A stretch of 64,000 nucleotides of DNA from contig NZ_JAFBBD010000011.1 of assembly GCF_016906995.1 (NCBI RefSeq), positions 52,843-116,842 of the forward strand. The letters are read 5' to 3'. Below, in pieces: positions 41,248 through 48,152 of the stretch. Under the pieces are notes generated by a model. The model had not been told where the DNA came from. It searched no databases and saw only the letters and a program-made list of their open reading frames with translations. Each line of letters starts with the position of its first letter. Position 1 is the first letter of the stretch. The stretch comes from Spongiibacter marinus. GTDB lineage: Bacteria > Pseudomonadota > Gammaproteobacteria > Pseudomonadales > Spongiibacteraceae. The translations under genes were made by a program, and so were the position numbers.

Positions 41248-41743
41248 ATTGCGACAGTTCTTCAGTGCCTATAAGCCAGAGTTCTTCGCTGCCTACCCAC
41301 TGGTCGGCCGGGGCACTGAGCTGGCTGTGTTGCCGGGCAAGTTCCTCAGACAGGTCTGCCAGTGGGGCGAGTACGAAGGGGCGCATGGGCATGCGCGGAT
41401 GCGGGATCTGCAGCGTGTTATTGTCTATGTGTTGTTCGCCGTACAACAGGATGTCCAGGTCTAGTGTGCGCGCGCCCCAGCGTACATCACGTTTGCGACC
41501 ATGCTGATGCTCAATGCGTTGCAGGGCGGCGAGCAGGTCTTCAGGGGAGAGCGCGGTGTCTAGCGCGGCGACGGCATTGATGTAGTCGGGCTGTTCGCCA
41601 GGGCCGATAGCGCGACTGCCATAGAACCGTGAACTCTCCACTAAGCGGCTGCCCGGCAGCCGCCGCAGTGCGTTCAGGGCGCCGTAAATTTGTGCGAGCG
41701 GAGAGGCCTGGTTGCTGCCCAGGCCGATATAACAGCGAATCAT
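41237..41743 (-). CDS. folK: HPPK, 6-hydroxymethyl-7,8-dihydropterin pyrophosphokinase
   Basis: It transfers pyrophosphate from ATP to the pterin precursor of folate. The 168-aa product has the hallmark GLGSNQASP near the N-terminus and the catalytic RKRDVRWGARTLDLDILLYG segment whose two Asp residues bind Mg. It overlaps pcnB by 4 bp (ATGA) and the dNK gene by 11 bp, so all three are translationally coupled. Confidence 0.96.
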   Translation of the reverse strand: MIRCYIGLGSNQASPLAQIYGALNALRRLPGSRLVESSRFYGSRAIGPGEQPDYINAVAALDTALSPEDLLAALQRIEHQHGRKRDVRWGARTLDLDILLYGEQHIDNNTLQIPHPRMPMRPFVLAPLADLSEELARQHSQLSAPADQWVGSEELWLIGTEELSQYAE

Positions 41744-43128
41744 GATGGCTTGCGCGGACCTCTGCGTCGACGTCTGGGGCGGCGGTTGCGCTCCCGCTCG
41801 GCGGCGTCGTTGGTGTGCTTCTGCATATCGCTGCGAGTTGTTGGCTGCGCCTCATAGAATGCTTGCCACCACTGGCTGAGCTGCTCGCTGACTTCGCCGG
41901 ATTGCTCACGCAATAGCAGGAAATCGTAACCGGCGCGGAAATAGCGATGCTCGACTAATTGCGAGGCGCGTTTGCCGGACTGGCGCTCAAAGCGCAGCTG
42001 TAGCTCCCAAATGTCGCGCATAGGTAGCGAGAAGCGCTTGGGAATAGCAATGCGTTGCTGCTGCTTGTGGAGGCAGCGCTCGGCGGCTTGATGGAGGGCC
42101 GGAATCGGCGGGACGCCATCCTCCAGCACCTCTTTATGCAGCTTCTTCACGACTGGCCATAACAGTACCGCGTAAAGGAAGGCCGGGGTGACTGGCTTGC
42201 CTGCGGCAATGCGCGCGTCGGTATTTGCCAGGCCCTGATGGATGAGTTCTTGTGTTTCCGGGCACTCTTCATCAAGCAAGCGCTGAGTGGCAGGGAATAG
42301 TGGGGCGAATAGCCCGTAGCGCTGCATCAGGGCATACGTTTGCAGAGCGCGGCCACCCATGAATAGTTTTAGCACCTCGTCAAACATACGGGCGGCGGCG
42401 ATATCGCCAAGCAGTGGCGCGAGTTCCCGCAAGGGCGCCTCTGTTGCAGCTTCAATGTCGAAGTCTAGCTTGGCGGCAAAGCGCACAACGCGCAGCATGC
42501 GCACAGGGTCTTCTCGATAGCGTGTTTCGGGGTCGCCGATTACGCGTATCAGTCTGCGTTCCAAATCTTCGATGCCGCCGACGAAGTCGTAGATGGCGAA
42601 GTCCCGGCTGGAGTAGTACAGCGCGTTAATGCTGAGGTCGCGGCGCATGGCATCTTCATCGATGCTGCCATAGACATTATCCCGCAGCAGCATGCCGGCT
42701 TCATTGCGTGCAGAGTGTTTGCCTTTCGGGCTGCTCTGCGAAGTCGGAGCATCGTGGCTGCCACGAAAGGTGGTCACCTCGATAACTTCGCGCCCAAAGC
42801 GGACGTGGACTATGCGAAAGCGCCGGCCAATGATGCGACTGTTGCGGAATAAGCCCCGTACTTGCTCGGGGGTGGCGTCGGTGGCGACGTCAAAGTCTTT
42901 GGGATCGCCGCCCAGCAGAATGTCGCGGACGCCGCCGCCTACAAGATAGGCCTCGTGGCCCGATTGGTTGAGGCGGTGAATGACCTTTAGGGCGCTGTCG
43001 CTGATCATGCTGCGCGACACGCCGTGGTCGTCGCGGGGGATAATAGTCGGGCTATGCGAACCTTTGTTGGAACGGCTTAGTTTGCCAGCGAGTTTTTTCC
43101 AAAGTCCTGAAACGGTGTTTGCGCTCAT
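41740..43128 (-). CDS. pcnB: Poly(A) polymerase I
   Basis: It adds poly(A) tails that mark RNA for decay. The class II nucleotidyltransferase core has LVGGGVRDILLGGDPKDFDVATDA, with the catalytic GG/DxD-type motif, followed by FRNSRIIGRRFRIVHV. The RNA-binding helices and an arginine-rich C-terminal tail follow. The ATG at 43128 (MSANTVSG) gives 462 aa, similar to E. coli; in-frame codons further upstream overlap the A-rich RNA locus and show no similarity. It follows cbrB as in Pseudomonas, with a putative regulatory RNA between. Confidence 0.95.
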   Translation of the reverse strand: MSANTVSGLWKKLAGKLSRSNKGSHSPTIIPRDDHGVSRSMISDSALKVIHRLNQSGHEAYLVGGGVRDILLGGDPKDFDVATDATPEQVRGLFRNSRIIGRRFRIVHVRFGREVIEVTTFRGSHDAPTSQSSPKGKHSARNEAGMLLRDNVYGSIDEDAMRRDLSINALYYSSRDFAIYDFVGGIEDLERRLIRVIGDPETRYREDPVRMLRVVRFAAKLDFDIEAATEAPLRELAPLLGDIAAARMFDEVLKLFMGGRALQTYALMQRYGLFAPLFPATQRLLDEECPETQELIHQGLANTDARIAAGKPVTPAFLYAVLLWPVVKKLHKEVLEDGVPPIPALHQAAERCLHKQQQRIAIPKRFSLPMRDIWELQLRFERQSGKRASQLVEHRYFRAGYDFLLLREQSGEVSEQLSQWWQAFYEAQPTTRSDMQKHTNDAAERERNRRPRRRRRGPRKPS

Positions 43129-43227
43129 TGCTCTCGATGTCAGCCTGGAAGGGCAAAGCGAGTATTCTAGCACAAGCAGAACTGAAGGCGCTTTTTGGAA
43201 GGGGAAAGGTTTTCGAGGGGCCAGAAA

Positions 43228-43255
43228 TGAAGAAGGGGAAAACAATGTCTTCCCC
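43228..43255 (-). terminator. Putative terminator of the CrcZ-like RNA
   Basis: On the minus strand GGGGAA-N9-TTCCCC is followed by TTCTTCATTT. The stem is short and the U tract interrupted, so efficiency is uncertain and some read-through into pcnB is likely. Confidence 0.55.
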
Positions 43256-43336
43256 ACCCAGGTCTTTTTACTACGTCTATTATTTTTATTTTTCCGCGTT
43301 CTTATTATTTTTATTGTATTTGTTATTCTTCTTTGT
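43228..43336 (-). ncRNA. Putative CrcZ-like Hfq/Crc-titrating small RNA
   Basis: Transcribed from the sigma-54 promoter at 43347-43362, an RNA starting near 43336 would contain three A-rich tracts (43320-43334, 43299-43315, 43278-43293). These hold at least six overlapping AANAANAA matches, such as AAGAAGAATAACAA and AATAATAAGAA. AANAANAA is the Crc/Hfq catabolite-activity motif carried by Pseudomonas CrcZ. A hairpin (GGGGAA/TTCCCC) and a U-rich stretch close it at about 110 nt. Its position between cbrB and pcnB is that of crcZ. It is much shorter than Pseudomonas CrcZ (about 400 nt), so it is a functional analogue by inference, not by sequence identity. Confidence 0.72.
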
Positions 43337-43346
43337 TGCTTATAAA

Positions 43347-43362
43347 TGCACTGCCTGTGCCA
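43347..43362 (-). promoter_or_regulatory. Sigma-54 promoter downstream of cbrB
   Basis: Minus strand TGGCAC-AGGCA-GTGCA keeps the invariant GG and GC with exactly 10 nt between; only the first base of the -12 box departs from TTGCA. It lies 128 bp after the cbrB stop and points toward pcnB, at the same place as the CbrB-activated crcZ promoter of Pseudomonas. Confidence 0.82.
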
Positions 43363-43437
43363 ACTTTTTATTTTGTATATAAATCAATGGGTTGTGTTTT
43401 TTTGGGTGTTGGCGGTGACGTGATTTTTATGGCCGGT

Positions 43438-43485
43438 TGTTACCTTAGTAAACGGTGTTTGTTACGCGCAGCTGGTTTGGGTAAC
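43438..43485. promoter_or_regulatory. Candidate CbrB enhancer: three TGTTAC-type half-sites
   Basis: TGTTAC at 43438-43443 and 43460-43465 and GGTAAC at 43480-43485 are spaced 22 and 20 bp start to start, about two helical turns, and lie 76-124 bp upstream of the -24 box. That geometry suits a sigma-54 activator. I recall TGTTAC half-sites for CbrB in Pseudomonas putida, but this has not been checked. Confidence 0.6.
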
Positions 43486-43489
43486 GGTG

Positions 43490-44923
43490 TCAGTTGCTAC
43501 TGGAGCGCGAGCTCTTCTTGCGCGGAATGCCCAAGCGTTGTCTTCTTTCCCACAGGCACTTTCGGCTAACACCGAGTTTCTGTGCGAGCTCTGTTTCGCT
43601 CATGCTGTCCTGATGTTCCAGTACGAAGCGTTGGAAGTAGTCTTCGAGTGACAGGTCTTCCGCGGGATCCGAGCTTCGCACTCTGCTGGGGCGGCTGTCT
43701 TTGCGATCGCTTCCCAGATTATTGCTGCTGCGATTGCGGTCGGGTTTGCGGCCGCGAATTTGGCTGATGTCTACCAGCTCCAGATCGATATCCAATAGCT
43801 CGTTGTCGATCTCATCGCCTTCGCAGAGAATCACCGCGCGCTCCACAGCGTTTTCCAGCTCGCGAATATTGCCGGGCCAAACGTAGGTGGTAATTGCTTG
43901 GATGGCTTTGGGACTGAATTTGAGTGGCCCCCGCCCCAGTGCCTCGCAGCGCCGGCTAAGCAGTGTTTCCGCGATTTCCAGGATATCCTTGCCGCGCTCG
44001 CGAAGAGGGGGGAGTTCCAGCTTCATCACATTGATGCGGTAATATAAATCCTCGCGGAAGCGGCCATTGTGGGCCATGTCTTTGAGGTCGCGGTGCGTGG
44101 CACAAATCAGCCGTACATCGACTTTGTTTGACTCCACTGAACCGATGCGGCGGATTTCGTCTTCCTGAATGAAGCGCAGCAGGCGCGCTTGCGCTTCCAG
44201 TGGCAGCTCGCCAATTTCGTCGAGGAAGAGCGTGCCGCCATCCGCGGCTTCGATAAGGCCGATGCGATTGGCGTTCGCCCCGGTAAAGGCACCTTTCTCG
44301 TATCCGAAAAGTTCTGACTCAATTAAAGTCTCAGGTATTGCCGCGCAGTTCACGCAAACGATGGGTTTGCTTGCGCGGGTGCTCTGGCTGTGAATGGCTC
44401 TGGCCACCAGCTCTTTACCGGTACCGGTTTCACCATGTACCAGTACGGTTGTGTCGGTGGGGGCTACGCGGTTGATGTATTCATATAATCGCTGCATGGG
44501 TTTGCAGCTACCGATCATGCCGCTGGTGTCTGCCTGCAGGGCTTTTTGCTGGCCAGGCATCGGCGGCGGATTGCTGGCGTTATCGGCAATGATGCGCGCG
44601 ACGGTTTCCAGCATTTCATCGTGGTCAAAGGGTTTGGCAATATAGTCAATTGCCCCCTGTTTCATCGAGTCGACCGCGGACTTCAAGCTGGCGTAGCTGG
44701 TCATGATAAGAACCGGGCGCTCGGTTTTGCTAATCAGCTCCGTGCCCGGTGCGCCGGGCAGCCGCAGGTCGCTGATCAGTAGCTGGTAACTATTGAGGTC
44801 GAAGCGCTCCAGGGCCTCTTGAACCGAACCGGCCTCGTCTACCTGATAGTCGTTGCGTTCGAGCAGGCGCCGCAGCGCAAGGCGAATGACATCTTCGTCT
44901 TCAACGATCAAAATACGAGGCAT
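43490..44923 (-). CDS. cbrB: CbrB sigma-54-dependent response regulator
   Basis: It activates sigma-54 promoters in response to CbrA and controls carbon/nitrogen balance and catabolite repression. The 477-aa product (Pseudomonas CbrB 478) has a receiver domain with D52, Walker A GETGTGKE (164-171), the sigma-54-contacting GAFTGA (211-216), Walker B LFLDEIGEL and a C-terminal Fis-type helix-turn-helix (SETELAQKLGVSRKCLWERR). Flanking by cbrA upstream and pcnB downstream supports CbrB over NtrC or PilR. A linker rich in Arg and Ser (about 385-425) is less conserved. Confidence 0.94.
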   Translation of the reverse strand: MPRILIVEDEDVIRLALRRLLERNDYQVDEAGSVQEALERFDLNSYQLLISDLRLPGAPGTELISKTERPVLIMTSYASLKSAVDSMKQGAIDYIAKPFDHDEMLETVARIIADNASNPPPMPGQQKALQADTSGMIGSCKPMQRLYEYINRVAPTDTTVLVHGETGTGKELVARAIHSQSTRASKPIVCVNCAAIPETLIESELFGYEKGAFTGANANRIGLIEAADGGTLFLDEIGELPLEAQARLLRFIQEDEIRRIGSVESNKVDVRLICATHRDLKDMAHNGRFREDLYYRINVMKLELPPLRERGKDILEIAETLLSRRCEALGRGPLKFSPKAIQAITTYVWPGNIRELENAVERAVILCEGDEIDNELLDIDLELVDISQIRGRKPDRNRSSNNLGSDRKDSRPSRVRSSDPAEDLSLEDYFQRFVLEHQDSMSETELAQKLGVSRKCLWERRQRLGIPRKKSSRSSSN

Positions 44924-44995: not shown

Positions 44996-47986
44996 CTACT
45001 TTTCAGAGGGTGTTGGGGGAGCGCAGTCGCCGCTGAGGTGACAGGCCAGAGGCAGCCGGATATGGAAGCGGGTGCCGCGCTCAGCGCCGTCGTTATAGGG
45101 GCTTTCTACGCTGATTTCGCCGCCGAGGTCATCGATGATTCGATAGACCAGAGCAAGGCCTAGTCCGGTGCCTTTGCCAGGTTCTTTTGTGGTAAAGAAT
45201 GGCTCGAATATCTGCTCGATCAAATCTGCATCGATGCCGCCGCCCTGGTCGCTGATTCGAATATGTGCCCAGGGACGGTGGTCGTCTGCATTGGCATCGA
45301 TAGTCACCTGGCCGCCGCCGGGGCTGGCATCCCGGGCGTTGGTGAGCAAATTAATAAATACCTGCATTAGCCGTTGCTGGTCGCCGGCGACGTCGAGGTC
45401 AGTGGGGCATTGATTCACGAAGCGGACCTGCTCGGCGGCGCGATCGAGCTCGAGTAGCTGAATGGCCTCGGCGATGCAGCTGCGTATCGCAACCGCCTCT
45501 TTCGCTCGCGTTGGGTGTTCGCGGCCATTGTGCGCGAAGTTGACCAGGCTTTGCACAATGCTGCTAATGCGCTGGGTCTGCTTGACGATTTGTTCGGCGC
45601 TTTCCAGTAGTAGGGGGTCGTCGGTTTCATAGCGCAGGTTCTGGGCCAGGCTGGCGATACCGGTGACCGGGTTGCCGATTTCATGAGCAACGCCAGCGGC
45701 CAGTCGGCCGATAGAGGCTAGTCGCTCCTGGTGTCCGAGTTCTTTTTCCAGCAGCTGGGTGTCAGTGATGTCTTCAACGACGATAATCAGCTCGTCGCGC
45801 CCGGGCAGCTCGGAATCCGTTTTGTGGAGATTTAGCCAGCGGGGCGCGCCGTCGACAACAATGCCTGCCTTGCTCCAGTGTTGGTCTTTGCTCGCGCTGA
45901 AATCTCGCAGCAAGGTTTGCCACTCGGCGGGGAGCCCGCTGAGGCTGGACCCGGTGATATCGCCGCTGGCCACGCCGGTGATGGTCGCCATGCTTTTATT
46001 CCACAGCAGGATTTCCTGATCGGCGGCCAAGGCGCAGACGCCTGTGGGTAAATCTTCGAGGGTTTGGCGGTGGTACCGCCGCAGGGCGTCGAGGTCGGCG
46101 GCCAGCCCCGTGAGGTGGGCCTGATAATGCTCTAAGCGATCTTCGATGTAATTGATGTCTTCGCCCTCGCCCATCAAATTGCTGGCATAAGGCAGGCTGC
46201 GGTCGATGACCCTGCGGGCGATCGTCGGGCCGAGTAACGCAGAGAGGTTGACCTCTATGCGGTCGCGAATACGTCGCAGGGCGTAAGGGCGGGTCTCATT
46301 GTCGTCGAGTTGGAGTTCCTCCAGAGCCCGATCCAGCTCTTCCTTTGCGACGGCGCTGCCGAGCGACTCGGCAAGGCGGTGGCGCATCTCGTGAGCGCTT
46401 TTGAGCGTAAGTGCCTGGCGGCCAGGGCGGTTTAAGTCGTCAATGGCGCAGGCTTCTGCGGCGCTTTGTTCTTCTTTGGAGGTTTCACTTAATAGTGAGA
46501 CGAGGATCATTACAAAGGCATTTAGCCCGAGTGAGAGTGTGGCGATCTCCATCCACTGCGGGCCTCGGCTGGGGTCGATGCCTGGCAGGGCAAGGATTAG
46601 CGCAGGTGTTTCCAGGCCAAATGCTGGTATCAGCAGGCCGAGTAGCCAGACAGAAAAGCCGGTAAGCAGTCCGGCGATAAAGCCGTTTCTGTTTGCAGAG
46701 GGCCAGTACATGACCGCCAGCAAACCGGGTAGAAACTGCGCGCAACCGGCGATGGAAATGACGGCCAGTGAGCTGAGCACTTGCCGCTCAGGGATAAGGA
46801 CGTATAGCAAGTAGCCCAGCATGATGGTGGTGAATATCAGCAGCTGTCGCGACCAGAGCAATTGGCGATAAATATCGCCTGGGCGGCGCTGGGGGCTGTG
46901 TAGCGGCAGGACAATGTGGTTGAGGTTCATGGAGGCGGTTGCCAGGGTGGCGACAATAATTGCGCCGCTGGCCGCGGAGATCCCGCCAATGAATACGAGC
47001 AATGTGAGTAAAGGGCTATCAAGCGCGCTCAGCACGTGCAGCGCGGCATAGTCGCCGCTACTTTCCCCGCCGCCAATTGCCGTGCTTGCCCACAAAAGTG
47101 GCAGTACGGGCAGGCTGATAAGCAATAAATAAAGGGGGAGGCCCCAGCCTGCGCCGTAGAGTTTTTTGCCACTGGGGTTTTCCGCGAAGAGCATGTGGAA
47201 GACATGTGGCATGCACAGCGATGCCGAGAAGAACAGCACCAGCATCATGCGGGCATTTTCTCGCTGGCTGGCATCTCGTAATTTTTCAATTAACTCAGGC
47301 TGAGTTTGCAACCAATTCTGCATGTCGCTGAAACCGCCGAATATGCCAAATATCGCCGCGGCGCCCAGGCAAATAAAAGCGACAAGTTTAACCAGCGACT
47401 CGAATGCCAGTGCGACGACTAACCCCTGGTGGCTATCGCGCGAGGATAAATTGCGAGAGCCAAAGAGGATGGTAAACAGGCTAATGATCAGGCAGAACAT
47501 AAATGCAGACAGGTGCCTGAACGTGCTGCTGTCAGTCTCAGATGCTGAGGGCGTAAGTAGTAGCGTGGCATCGGAGACTGTTTGAATTTGCATCGCCAGC
47601 AGCGGCCACATGGCGATGCTGCAGAAAACAGTCGTTAAAGAGCCTACCCACTGGCTGCGATAGCGGAAGCTCAACAAGTCGGCCAGTGAATGCAGCTGGT
47701 AGTTTTTGCAGATGTGATACAGCGGGGTAATAACGATCGGTAACAAAAACAGTGCAGCTGAAATGCCAAGGTAATAATTAAGGTAACCCAGGCCATAGGC
47801 CTTGGCCATGCCCGTTACGCCGTAAAAAGCGAAAGCGCTGGCGTAGACACCGAGCGACAAAACATAGACCGCCGGGTGATCAATTAACTTGCTCGGCAGC
47901 CAGCGATGCTCACTGGCATAAGCGATGGCAAACAAGGTGAGCAGATAGGCGAGCGCGCAGAGCAGCAGAACATTGGCTTCAAACAT
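44996..47986 (-). CDS. cbrA: CbrA sensor: sodium/solute symporter-like domain fused to histidine kinase
   Basis: This 996-aa hybrid has an N-terminal SSF (SLC5-like) region of about 13 membrane segments (residues 1-490), a linker, a PAS domain (about 635-745), HisKA with the phosphorylated His near 768 (VAHEIGNP) and HATPase_c ([20 protein letters not shown]). In Pseudomonas CbrA the transporter domain moves histidine and the kinase drives CbrB. I start at the ATG that overlaps the stop of the small upstream gene by 8 bp. There is no good Shine-Dalgarno sequence, which fits translational coupling. cbrB follows after 72 bp. Confidence 0.95.
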
Positions 47987-48152
47987 CGCGCTTGCGCCGA
48001 TAGTTGGCCAGGAAAACAAAAACAATAACGGCCAGCCACAGTAAATGCAGTCGGTACCAGGCCTGCCCGCCGCTGTATATCCAGTGGTTCAGCGTGGGGG
48101 TGAACACCACCATGAAACAGAGCAGCAATAGTAGTGGGGCTTGTAAGCGCAT
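47979..48152 (-). CDS. cbrX: Small two-helix membrane protein overlapping cbrA (CbrX-like)
   Basis: This 57-aa protein has two hydrophobic segments (about residues 4-19 and 33-50) and a positively charged end (ANYRRKRDV). Its stop lies inside the cbrA start (ATGTTTGA). A small protein coupled to cbrA and named CbrX is known in Pseudomonas; size, topology and overlap agree. The first ATG of the hydrophobic protein was chosen; its ribosome site is weak. A role in modulating cbrA translation or the sensor is inferred. Confidence 0.78.
   Translation of the reverse strand: MRLQAPLLLLLCFMVVFTPTLNHWIYSGGQAWYRLHLLWLAVIVFVFLANYRRKRDV

What the first reader, a model, noticed from the sequence alone, without database searches (positions are those of the whole stretch)
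43228..43362. CrcZ-like Hfq/Crc decoy RNA between cbrB and pcnB
Seen: a sigma-54 promoter (TGGCAC-N5-GTGCA) 128 bp after cbrB, then about 110 nt on the minus strand with three A-rich tracts carrying many overlapping AANAANAA motifs, then a hairpin. Known: Pseudomonas CrcZ lies at this spot, is driven by CbrB with sigma-54, and binds Hfq/Crc through AANAANAA motifs to relieve catabolite repression. Inferred: this locus encodes a short functional counterpart, perhaps the minimal form of the CrcZ family and one that sequence-based covariance models would miss because little besides the motif and position is conserved.
Basis: partly seen in the sequence, partly recalled or inferred. Interest (0 to 1): 0.9.

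Follow-up and report, generated by a model that had tools for sequence, protein, structure and literature searches.

The report
Short CrcZ-like Hfq decoy RNA
A marine bacterium outside the Pseudomonas family carries, between the genes cbrB and pcnB, a CbrB-type promoter sequence followed by a predicted RNA of about 110 bases that would likely soak up the regulator Hfq and so switch on the use of poorer foods, and the same kind of control region recurs after cbrB in many related families although a 2022 review describes the system as unique to the Pseudomonas family.

Summary
Between cbrB and pcnB (minus strand) lie a sigma-54 box, a predicted ~110-nt RNA with three ARN runs (5, 6, 6 triplets) and a hairpin. 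Motif density is the highest in the window and in 400 kb more of the genome. Rfam CrcZ picks this locus as the genome's only hit (E<=0.001) but far below its cut-off (22.8 vs 95 bits), and the long CrcZ core is absent: it works like CrcZ and sits in its place, but is not a member of RF01675. Promoter plus A-rich cluster follow cbrB in at least one locus of 26 of 30 families read (not a random choice), whereas a 2022 review calls CbrAB/CrcZ exclusive to Pseudomonadaceae. Transcription and Hfq/Crc binding are untested; Crc dimer-contact residues are not conserved, so Hfq may be the main partner.

The parts
47979..48152 (-). cbrX-like ORF, 57 aa, overlapping the start of cbrA by 8 nt
   Evidence: sequence. 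P. putida cbrX: 58 aa, overlaps cbrA by 17 nt (PMC6591292, passages). No Pfam match; sequence similarity to CbrX not tested.
44996..47986 (-). cbrA: SSF (SLC5-type) transporter domain + PAS + HisKA + HATPase sensor kinase
   Evidence: Pfam (scanned from the upstream TTG at 48025); ATG at 47986.
43490..44923 (-). cbrB: response regulator + sigma-54 activator domain
   Evidence: 62-65% identity, over the part held, to the gene upstream of full-length CrcZ in ten f21 (Pseudomonas-family) loci.
43481..43486 (-). CbrB subsite F1 (CGTTAC; consensus TGTTAC)
   Evidence: consensus from PMC6296734 (passages).
43460..43465 (-). CbrB subsite R1 (GTAACA), 21 bp from F1
43438..43443 (-). CbrB subsite R2 (GTAACA), 22 bp from R1
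43382..43394 (-). IHF-like site CAACCCATTGATT (fits YAANNNNTTGATW, consensus recalled)
43347..43362 (-). sigma-54 promoter TGGCACAGGCAGTGCA
43225..43336 (-). predicted decoy RNA, ~110 nt (both ends inferred)
   Evidence: Start from the -12 box, end from hairpin and tail; transcript not shown.
43319..43333 (-). ARN run 1 (5 triplets)
43298..43315 (-). ARN run 2 (6 triplets)
43276..43293 (-). ARN run 3 (6 triplets)
43249..43264 (-). conserved 3' element GACCUGGGUGGGGAAG
43235..43255 (-). 3' hairpin GGGGAAGAC-AUU-GUUUUCCCC followed by UUCUUCAUUU (terminator-like)
43164..43174 (-). TGTGCTAGAAT, extended -10-like box before pcnB, downstream of the hairpin
   Evidence: Exact in 11 of 13 own-family loci, variants in the other 2; role inferred. 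The sigma-70 scan, which needs both hexamers, found no promoter here.
41740..43128 (-). pcnB (poly(A) polymerase)

Best explanation
The gap between cbrB and pcnB holds a CbrB-type sigma-54 promoter sequence followed by a predicted RNA of about 110 nt that likely acts as a decoy for Hfq, with or without Crc. When good carbon runs short, CbrA would activate CbrB, which would bind F1/R1/R2 and, with IHF bending the DNA, fire the sigma-54 promoter. Each of the RNA's three ARN runs would occupy the distal face of one Hfq hexamer, drawing Hfq (and Crc where it joins) off A-rich ribosome-binding sites of uptake and catabolic mRNAs, which would then be translated. The hairpin would end the RNA before pcnB, which has its own -10-like box. 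Shown by sequence: gene order, promoter, subsite geometry, ARN runs, conserved 3' element, and hfq, rpoN and crc genes. Inferred: transcription, its control, Hfq/Crc binding, and the effect on targets. IHF genes were not looked for.
For: Gene order cbrX-like/cbrA/cbrB/RNA/pcnB as in Pseudomonas. F1-R1-R2 spacing 21 and 22 bp, F1 starting 124 nt before the -24 box; ten f21 (Pseudomonas-family) loci have 20-23 bp and 122-125 nt; 90 of 114 promoter-bearing loci have <=3 of 18 mismatches. IHF-like site (<=1 mismatch) in 81 of 114 loci against 15 of 114 after one shuffle each (own family 10 of 13). Motif cluster beyond chance; 106 of 114 loci have p<=0.01 for the motif count. Rfam CrcZ: only hit in the genome, E 6.1e-4. 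rpoN present. Hfq residues Y25, L26, I30, L32, Q33, Q52, T61 all kept (roles from passages of PMC6422490). crc lies between rph and pyrE as in the f21, f34 and f20 genomes G290, G128 and G270; its best PDB hit is Crc (E 4.9e-57) and the RNA-contact residues R140, R141 are kept. A 151-nt piece of P. aeruginosa CrcZ with 3 A-rich stretches gives three shifted bands with Hfq (PMC4063720, passages), close to the size and site number here. Lead: of 18 of 381 genes with AANAANAA near the start codon, 14 have Pfam hits, among them a Na/alanine symporter, an SNF-type symporter, a TonB receptor and two AMP-binding ligases.
Against: No transcript evidence. RF01675 score 22.8, gathering 95. No long CrcZ core. 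The fold of the whole RNA is not better than shuffles (z -1.06). Crc dimer-contact residues differ (R229I, R230P, F231R, E193L, R233E, N184E, E142D), so Hfq/Crc assembly as in P. aeruginosa is not assured. By sequence alone the Pseudomonas-family Crc (L277) scores slightly higher with the paralogue L034 (218 bits) than with this Crc (184 bits), and NCBIfam names both exodeoxyribonuclease III, so orthology rests on synteny. The tail after the hairpin is only moderately U-rich and shuffles give 0.9 terminator-like sites by chance. The target lead is small, classified after the fact, and its 18 genes also include unrelated ones (AAA ATPase, CsiV, a RiPP-modification enzyme).
Confidence: 0.86

Rival explanations
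1. The RNA titrates Hfq alone; Crc is not a partner in this lineage.
For: Crc dimer contacts R229, R230, F231, E193 are not kept here. In f28, G066 and G098 have promoter and A-rich cluster but no Crc-like match at 1e-20 with the own Crc as query; of f28 only G028 is among the matched rows. In P. aeruginosa Hfq is described as the principal regulator and RNA binder (PMC4063720, abstract and passages).
Against: A close Crc is found in all 13 own-family genomes; the RNA-contact arginines R140/R141 are kept in the own genome.
Confidence: 0.35
2. The sigma-54 promoter makes a leader of pcnB mRNA, and the A-rich tract is a 5' UTR or an N-terminal PcnB extension.
For: Same strand; in this genome the nearest in-frame stop lies 258 nt before the pcnB ATG, beyond the A-rich tracts; the hairpin tail is not a perfect U run.
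Against: The frame is closed between 3' element and pcnB start in 10 of 13 own-family loci (in L040 and L049, both among the 10, the start codon was extrapolated from the alignment); a -10-like box is conserved after the hairpin; the hairpin keeps pairing while its sequence varies.
Confidence: 0.08
3. The 3' element (ACCUGGAUGGGG) is a CsrA/RsmA site, making the RNA a decoy for that protein too.
For: GGA in a short conserved stretch before a hairpin in most families that have the element; RsmA is reported to bind the 3' region of CrcZ (PMC8871633, passages). That CsrA prefers GGA is recalled.
Against: All 12 genus-g1 loci read GGGUG, without GGA (11 by the script, L046 by eye).
Confidence: 0.08
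4. AT-rich spacer; motifs by chance.
For: A content of 48% in the transcript.
Against: Shuffles, uniqueness in 464 kb, recurrence in 26 of 30 families.
Confidence: 0.01

Closest known systems
CrcZ (Rfam RF01675) of Pseudomonas and Azotobacter; paralogues CrcY, CrcX
   Same: Place between cbrB and pcnB, CbrB subsites and sigma-54 promoter geometry, repeated A-rich Hfq sites, 3' hairpin.
   Different: About 110 nt and 3 ARN runs instead of ~400 nt (407 in P. aeruginosa, PMC4063720) and six; no TTTTGGAGAGG / TCCGTTTG core; own 3' element GACCUGGRUGGGGAAG, not found in the f21 loci; below the Rfam cut-off.
CrcZ151, 5' fragment of P. aeruginosa CrcZ used in binding tests (PMC4063720, passages)
   Same: Similar size, three A-rich stretches, likely three Hfq hexamers.
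   Different: A laboratory fragment; here the whole predicted gene is of that size.
CsrB/RsmZ-type decoy RNAs (recalled)
   Same: Small RNA with repeated binding sites that titrates a global RNA-binding regulator, under two-component control.
   Different: Other protein (CsrA/RsmA), other motif (GGA).

Membership tests
CrcZ (Rfam RF01675) | Covariance score at or above gathering score (95 bits) | tested here: not met
   22.8 bits; 14 of 293 order genomes pass.
CrcZ (Rfam RF01675) | ~400 nt body with conserved core | tested here: not met
   Core patterns in 0 of 13 own-family loci; found only in f21, f2, f34, f20 of the 28 families with a promoter of 8/12 or better.
CrcZ-like decoy (functional class) | Located between cbrB and pcnB, same strand | tested here: met
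CrcZ-like decoy (functional class) | Sigma-54 promoter with CbrB subsites F1-R1-R2 20-25 bp apart | tested here: met
   (sequence only).
CrcZ-like decoy (functional class) | Several ARN/AANAANAA Hfq distal-face sites | tested here: met
   Runs of 5, 6, 6 triplets.
CrcZ-like decoy (functional class) | hfq with distal-face residues, rpoN and crc in the genome | tested here: met
CrcZ-like decoy (functional class) | CbrB/RpoN-dependent transcript induced on poor carbon | not testable with these tools
   No expression data.
CrcZ-like decoy (functional class) | Binds Hfq/Crc and relieves repression | not testable with these tools
   Needs binding and reporter tests.
Hfq/Crc assembly as in P. aeruginosa | Crc dimer-contact residues R229, R230, F231, E193 | tested here: not met
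   I, P, R, L at these places.

The most novel reading that the evidence does not exclude
The CbrAB-decoy RNA circuit is an ancient device of the whole order Pseudomonadales, not a Pseudomonas specialty: the promoter (F1-R1-R2, IHF-like site, sigma-54 box) is frozen in geometry while the RNA body has been freely rebuilt, giving a short coreless class with its own 3' element (Spongiibacteraceae, Halieaceae, Oceanicoccus clade and others), often doubled in tandem, beside the long CrcZ class found in only four of the sampled families; in some lineages it works on Hfq without Crc.
Probability: 0.65. Interest if true: 0.75.

Novelty: new variant of a known kind. Interest (0 to 1): 0.62.

Why it matters
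A 2022 review describes CbrAB and CrcZ as exclusive to Pseudomonadaceae (PMC8871633, passages). If this RNA works as predicted, Hfq-based carbon catabolite control is common across a large group of marine and soil bacteria, and the short form shows what a CrcZ needs: a CbrB promoter and about three Hfq-sized ARN runs. The many natural variants (one or two units, with and without a Crc-like protein) make site number and the role of Crc directly testable.

Tried and rejected
Rfam at gathering score: no hit in the window. Whole-RNA fold: not better than shuffles, so the decoy body is taken as mostly unpaired. MAFFT alignment of 41 short units (A2; chosen from the longer list) misplaced the 3' arm of the hairpin because loops differ; model R1 was therefore built from the 15 of 41 with equal hairpin length, dropping 26. 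In the stem table, at least 5 of 66 distinct hairpins (L056-1, L063-1, L117, L167-1, L174-1) were given a wrong long-loop pairing by the longest-stem rule, so the pair counts are approximate and the U-A cases at pair 8 should be ignored; no formal covariation test was run. N-terminal PcnB extension: rejected. CsrA site as general function: weakened. Orthology of crc by sequence alone: not decisive, so settled by synteny. Two wider claims failed: the five f43 loci have A-rich motifs but no TGGCAC-type box, and f9 loci with a box have only 2 motifs. R1 matched 1 of 369 genomes at class level, the own one, so the short class is not claimed beyond the order; at the cut-off used R1 also misses G010 (f11), whose element is exact.

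Paper searches for CrcZ or CbrAB beyond Pseudomonas: (0 papers); one search was badly framed (2,380 papers, none of the 30 listed holds CrcZ) and searches listed 8 of 75 and 8 of 16. In the rows and passages I saw there was no description of CrcZ outside Pseudomonadaceae; one paper (PMC5073097, passages) reports cbrA/cbrB transcripts in a marine metatranscriptome without, in those passages, naming the organisms. This is a statement about these searches of open-access PMC papers only.

Full report
WHAT IS THERE. On the minus strand the window reads cbrX-like ORF, cbrA (SSF transporter domain, PAS, HisKA, HATPase), cbrB (receiver and sigma-54 activator domain), a 361-nt gap, and pcnB. In the gap: CbrB subsites F1 CGTTAC, R1 GTAACA, R2 GTAACA, 21 and 22 bp apart; an IHF-like site at 43394-43382 (consensus recalled); the sigma-54 box TGGCACAGGCAGTGCA at 43362-43347; three ARN runs of 5, 6 and 6 triplets; the element GACCUGGGUGGGGAAG; a 9-bp hairpin at 43255-43235 with tail UUCUUCAUUU; and a -10-like box TGTGCTAGAAT before pcnB. 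The start at 43336 and the end near 43225 are inferred.

IS IT MORE THAN CHANCE. The 110-nt transcript has 10 AANAANAA motifs against a mean of 1.97 in 5000 dinucleotide shuffles (4 reach 10); the best 100-nt window has 11 and the next best in 64 kb has 4. Among 171 sigma-54-like sites in 464 kb of this genome, only this one is followed by more than 3 motifs. All 13 own-family genomes of the sample keep promoter, cluster and 3' element; for one (L046) the strict script pattern missed the element by one base, as one search shows.

WHERE ELSE. The window's genome is a sister of Neomelitea salexigens: 95.1% over 800 nt, while sample genome G123 is identical there to N. salexigens. Loci of the own family f1 are identical over 800 nt to Spongiibacter pelagi and Zhongshania antarctica, so f1 is Spongiibacteraceae; f40 holds Chromatocurvus and Pseudohalioglobus (Halieaceae, placement recalled), f47 an Oceanicoccus MAG, f21 is nearest to Pseudomonas; other family codes are unnamed. 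A CbrB C-terminal query matched 261 of 293 genomes of the order. I read the stretch after cbrB in 125 loci from 30 families (131 loci held, 6 dropped because cbrB was not found in the stretch: L002, L013, L025, L030, L031, L135). The choice was not random: loci came from CrcZ hits and from the better CbrB matches, so the weaker-matching families of the 47 in the sample were not read. 114 of 125 have a promoter of at least 8/12; of these 110 have at least 3 motifs and 106 have p<=0.01 against shuffles. Promoter plus at least 3 motifs occurs in at least one locus of 26 of 30 families; not in f9, f10, f43, f46. CbrB subsites with <=3 of 18 mismatches: 90 of 114, with f36 (0 of 4), f44 (2 of 6) and f13 (2 of 5) among the poor ones; in f21 F1 starts 122-125 nt before the box, here 124.

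TWO BODIES. The long CrcZ core patterns occur in f21, f2, f34 and f20 only, of 28 families tested. Best RF01675 scores grade from 305-368 bits (f21) through 101-111 (f2), 66-73 (f34) and 33-55 (f20) to 20-24 in the own family, where 5 of 13 genomes (G000, G063, G171, G192, G252) match at E<=0.01 under the stricter filters and 8 do not. The short body has the element GACCUGGRUGGGGAAG and a hairpin, seen by pattern in f1, f11, f29, f40, f45 and f47. The hairpin varies with pairing kept (pair 5: A-U 51, G-C 10, G-U 5; pair 7: A-U 30, G-C 26, G-U 10, of 66 distinct hairpins, at least 5 of them mispaired by the script). A model built from 15 short units (R1) gives one hit in the own genome at E<=1 (a training sequence, so by construction) and hits in 51 of 293 order genomes at E<=1e-4 (at least 9 of the 51 supplied training rows), adding f4, f13, f27, f30 and f31. 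Of 70 listed places, 65 lie within 1.3 kb downstream of cbrB on its strand, 2 do not (both in the fragmented assembly G045), and for 3 the cbrB place was not listed. At class level R1 matched 1 of 369 genomes, the own one. Five of ten Halieaceae-family (f40) sample loci show two units by the strict pattern, the second without a recognised promoter; eight of nine f47 loci show two, each with its own sigma-54 box.

PARTNERS. Hfq keeps the distal-face residues; rpoN is present. Five PF03372 proteins occur in the genome. The one between rph and pyrE is taken as Crc: the same order rph-crc-pyrE is found in G290 (f21), G128 (f34) and G270 (f20), its best PDB hit is Crc with 40% identity over 254 residues. 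Against this, by sequence alone the f21 Crc (L277) scores 218 bits with the paralogue L034 and 184 with this protein, and L034, whose own best PDB hit is an exodeoxyribonuclease, also scores higher with Crc (235 against 196 bits); so orthology rests on synteny, with this Crc having diverged. R137, K139, R140 and R141 are kept; R229, R230, F231, E193 and R233 are not (roles from passages of PMC6422490). A Crc-like protein at 1e-20 was found in 233 of 293 genomes, a count that includes exonuclease paralogues; G066 and G098 (f28) have promoter and cluster but no such match, and no f43 genome is among the matched rows, where the read loci also lack the box.

TARGET LEAD. In 400 kb plus the window, 381 simply called genes: AANAANAA starts in the bins from -40 to +20 number 27 against 6 for the TTNTTNTT control, which a general purine bias before start codons would also give in part. 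18 of 381 have a motif in -45..+18; 14 of the 18 have a Pfam match, among them Na/alanine symporter, SNF-type symporter, TonB receptor, two AMP-binding ligases and several oxidoreductase or hydrolase families, but also an AAA ATPase, CsiV and a RiPP-modification enzyme. Of 20 random others 17 have a match, mostly housekeeping, with malate synthase, a short-chain dehydrogenase and a chloride channel among them. This is a lead, not a test.

READING. The locus is a positional and promoter-level counterpart of crcZ with a different, shorter body. It works like CrcZ on the features that sequence can show, but it fails the Rfam membership score and lacks the long core, so I do not file it under RF01675. 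A review states that the cbrA-cbrB-crcZ arrangement has been described only in Pseudomonas and Azotobacter and is unique to Pseudomonadaceae (PMC8871633, passages); a second paper calls the system exclusive to the Pseudomonads (PMC6296734, start of abstract in the listing). The comparative data here speak against that. What remains open is expression, Hfq binding, and whether Crc takes part.

Noticed in passing
L051, L053, L055, L060, L065, L066, L129, L131 (f47, Oceanicoccus clade): Two short decoy units in tandem between cbrB and pcnB, each with its own sigma-54 box; the second has a GGGGGAAA-type hairpin.
   Followed up: partly
L056, L057, L059, L061, L063 (f40, Halieaceae): A second unit with the same 3' element but no recognised own promoter, so perhaps one longer transcript.
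   Followed up: partly
L104, L105 (G098, G066; f28): Promoter and A-rich cluster present, but no Crc-like protein at 1e-20 in these genomes: possible Hfq-only system.
   Followed up: no
L119-L123 (f43): A-rich motifs after cbrB but no TGGCAC-type sigma-54 box; no f43 genome is among the Crc matches.
   Followed up: no
window 47979-48152 (-): 57-aa hydrophobic ORF overlapping cbrA, like CbrX of P. putida (58 aa).
   Followed up: partly
L034 1465-2238 (-), own genome: A paralogue that is closer in sequence to Pseudomonas Crc than the syntenic crc is, yet closest to an exodeoxyribonuclease; the syntenic Crc has diverged.
   Followed up: partly
L266 18623 (+), own genome: Sigma-54-like box TGGCACGGTCTATGCT followed by 3 AANAANAA motifs, the runner-up in 464 kb.
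   Followed up: no
L256 16173-17531 (-), own genome: Na/alanine symporter gene with AATAACAACGATAAGG before its start: a candidate Hfq/Crc target.
   Followed up: partly
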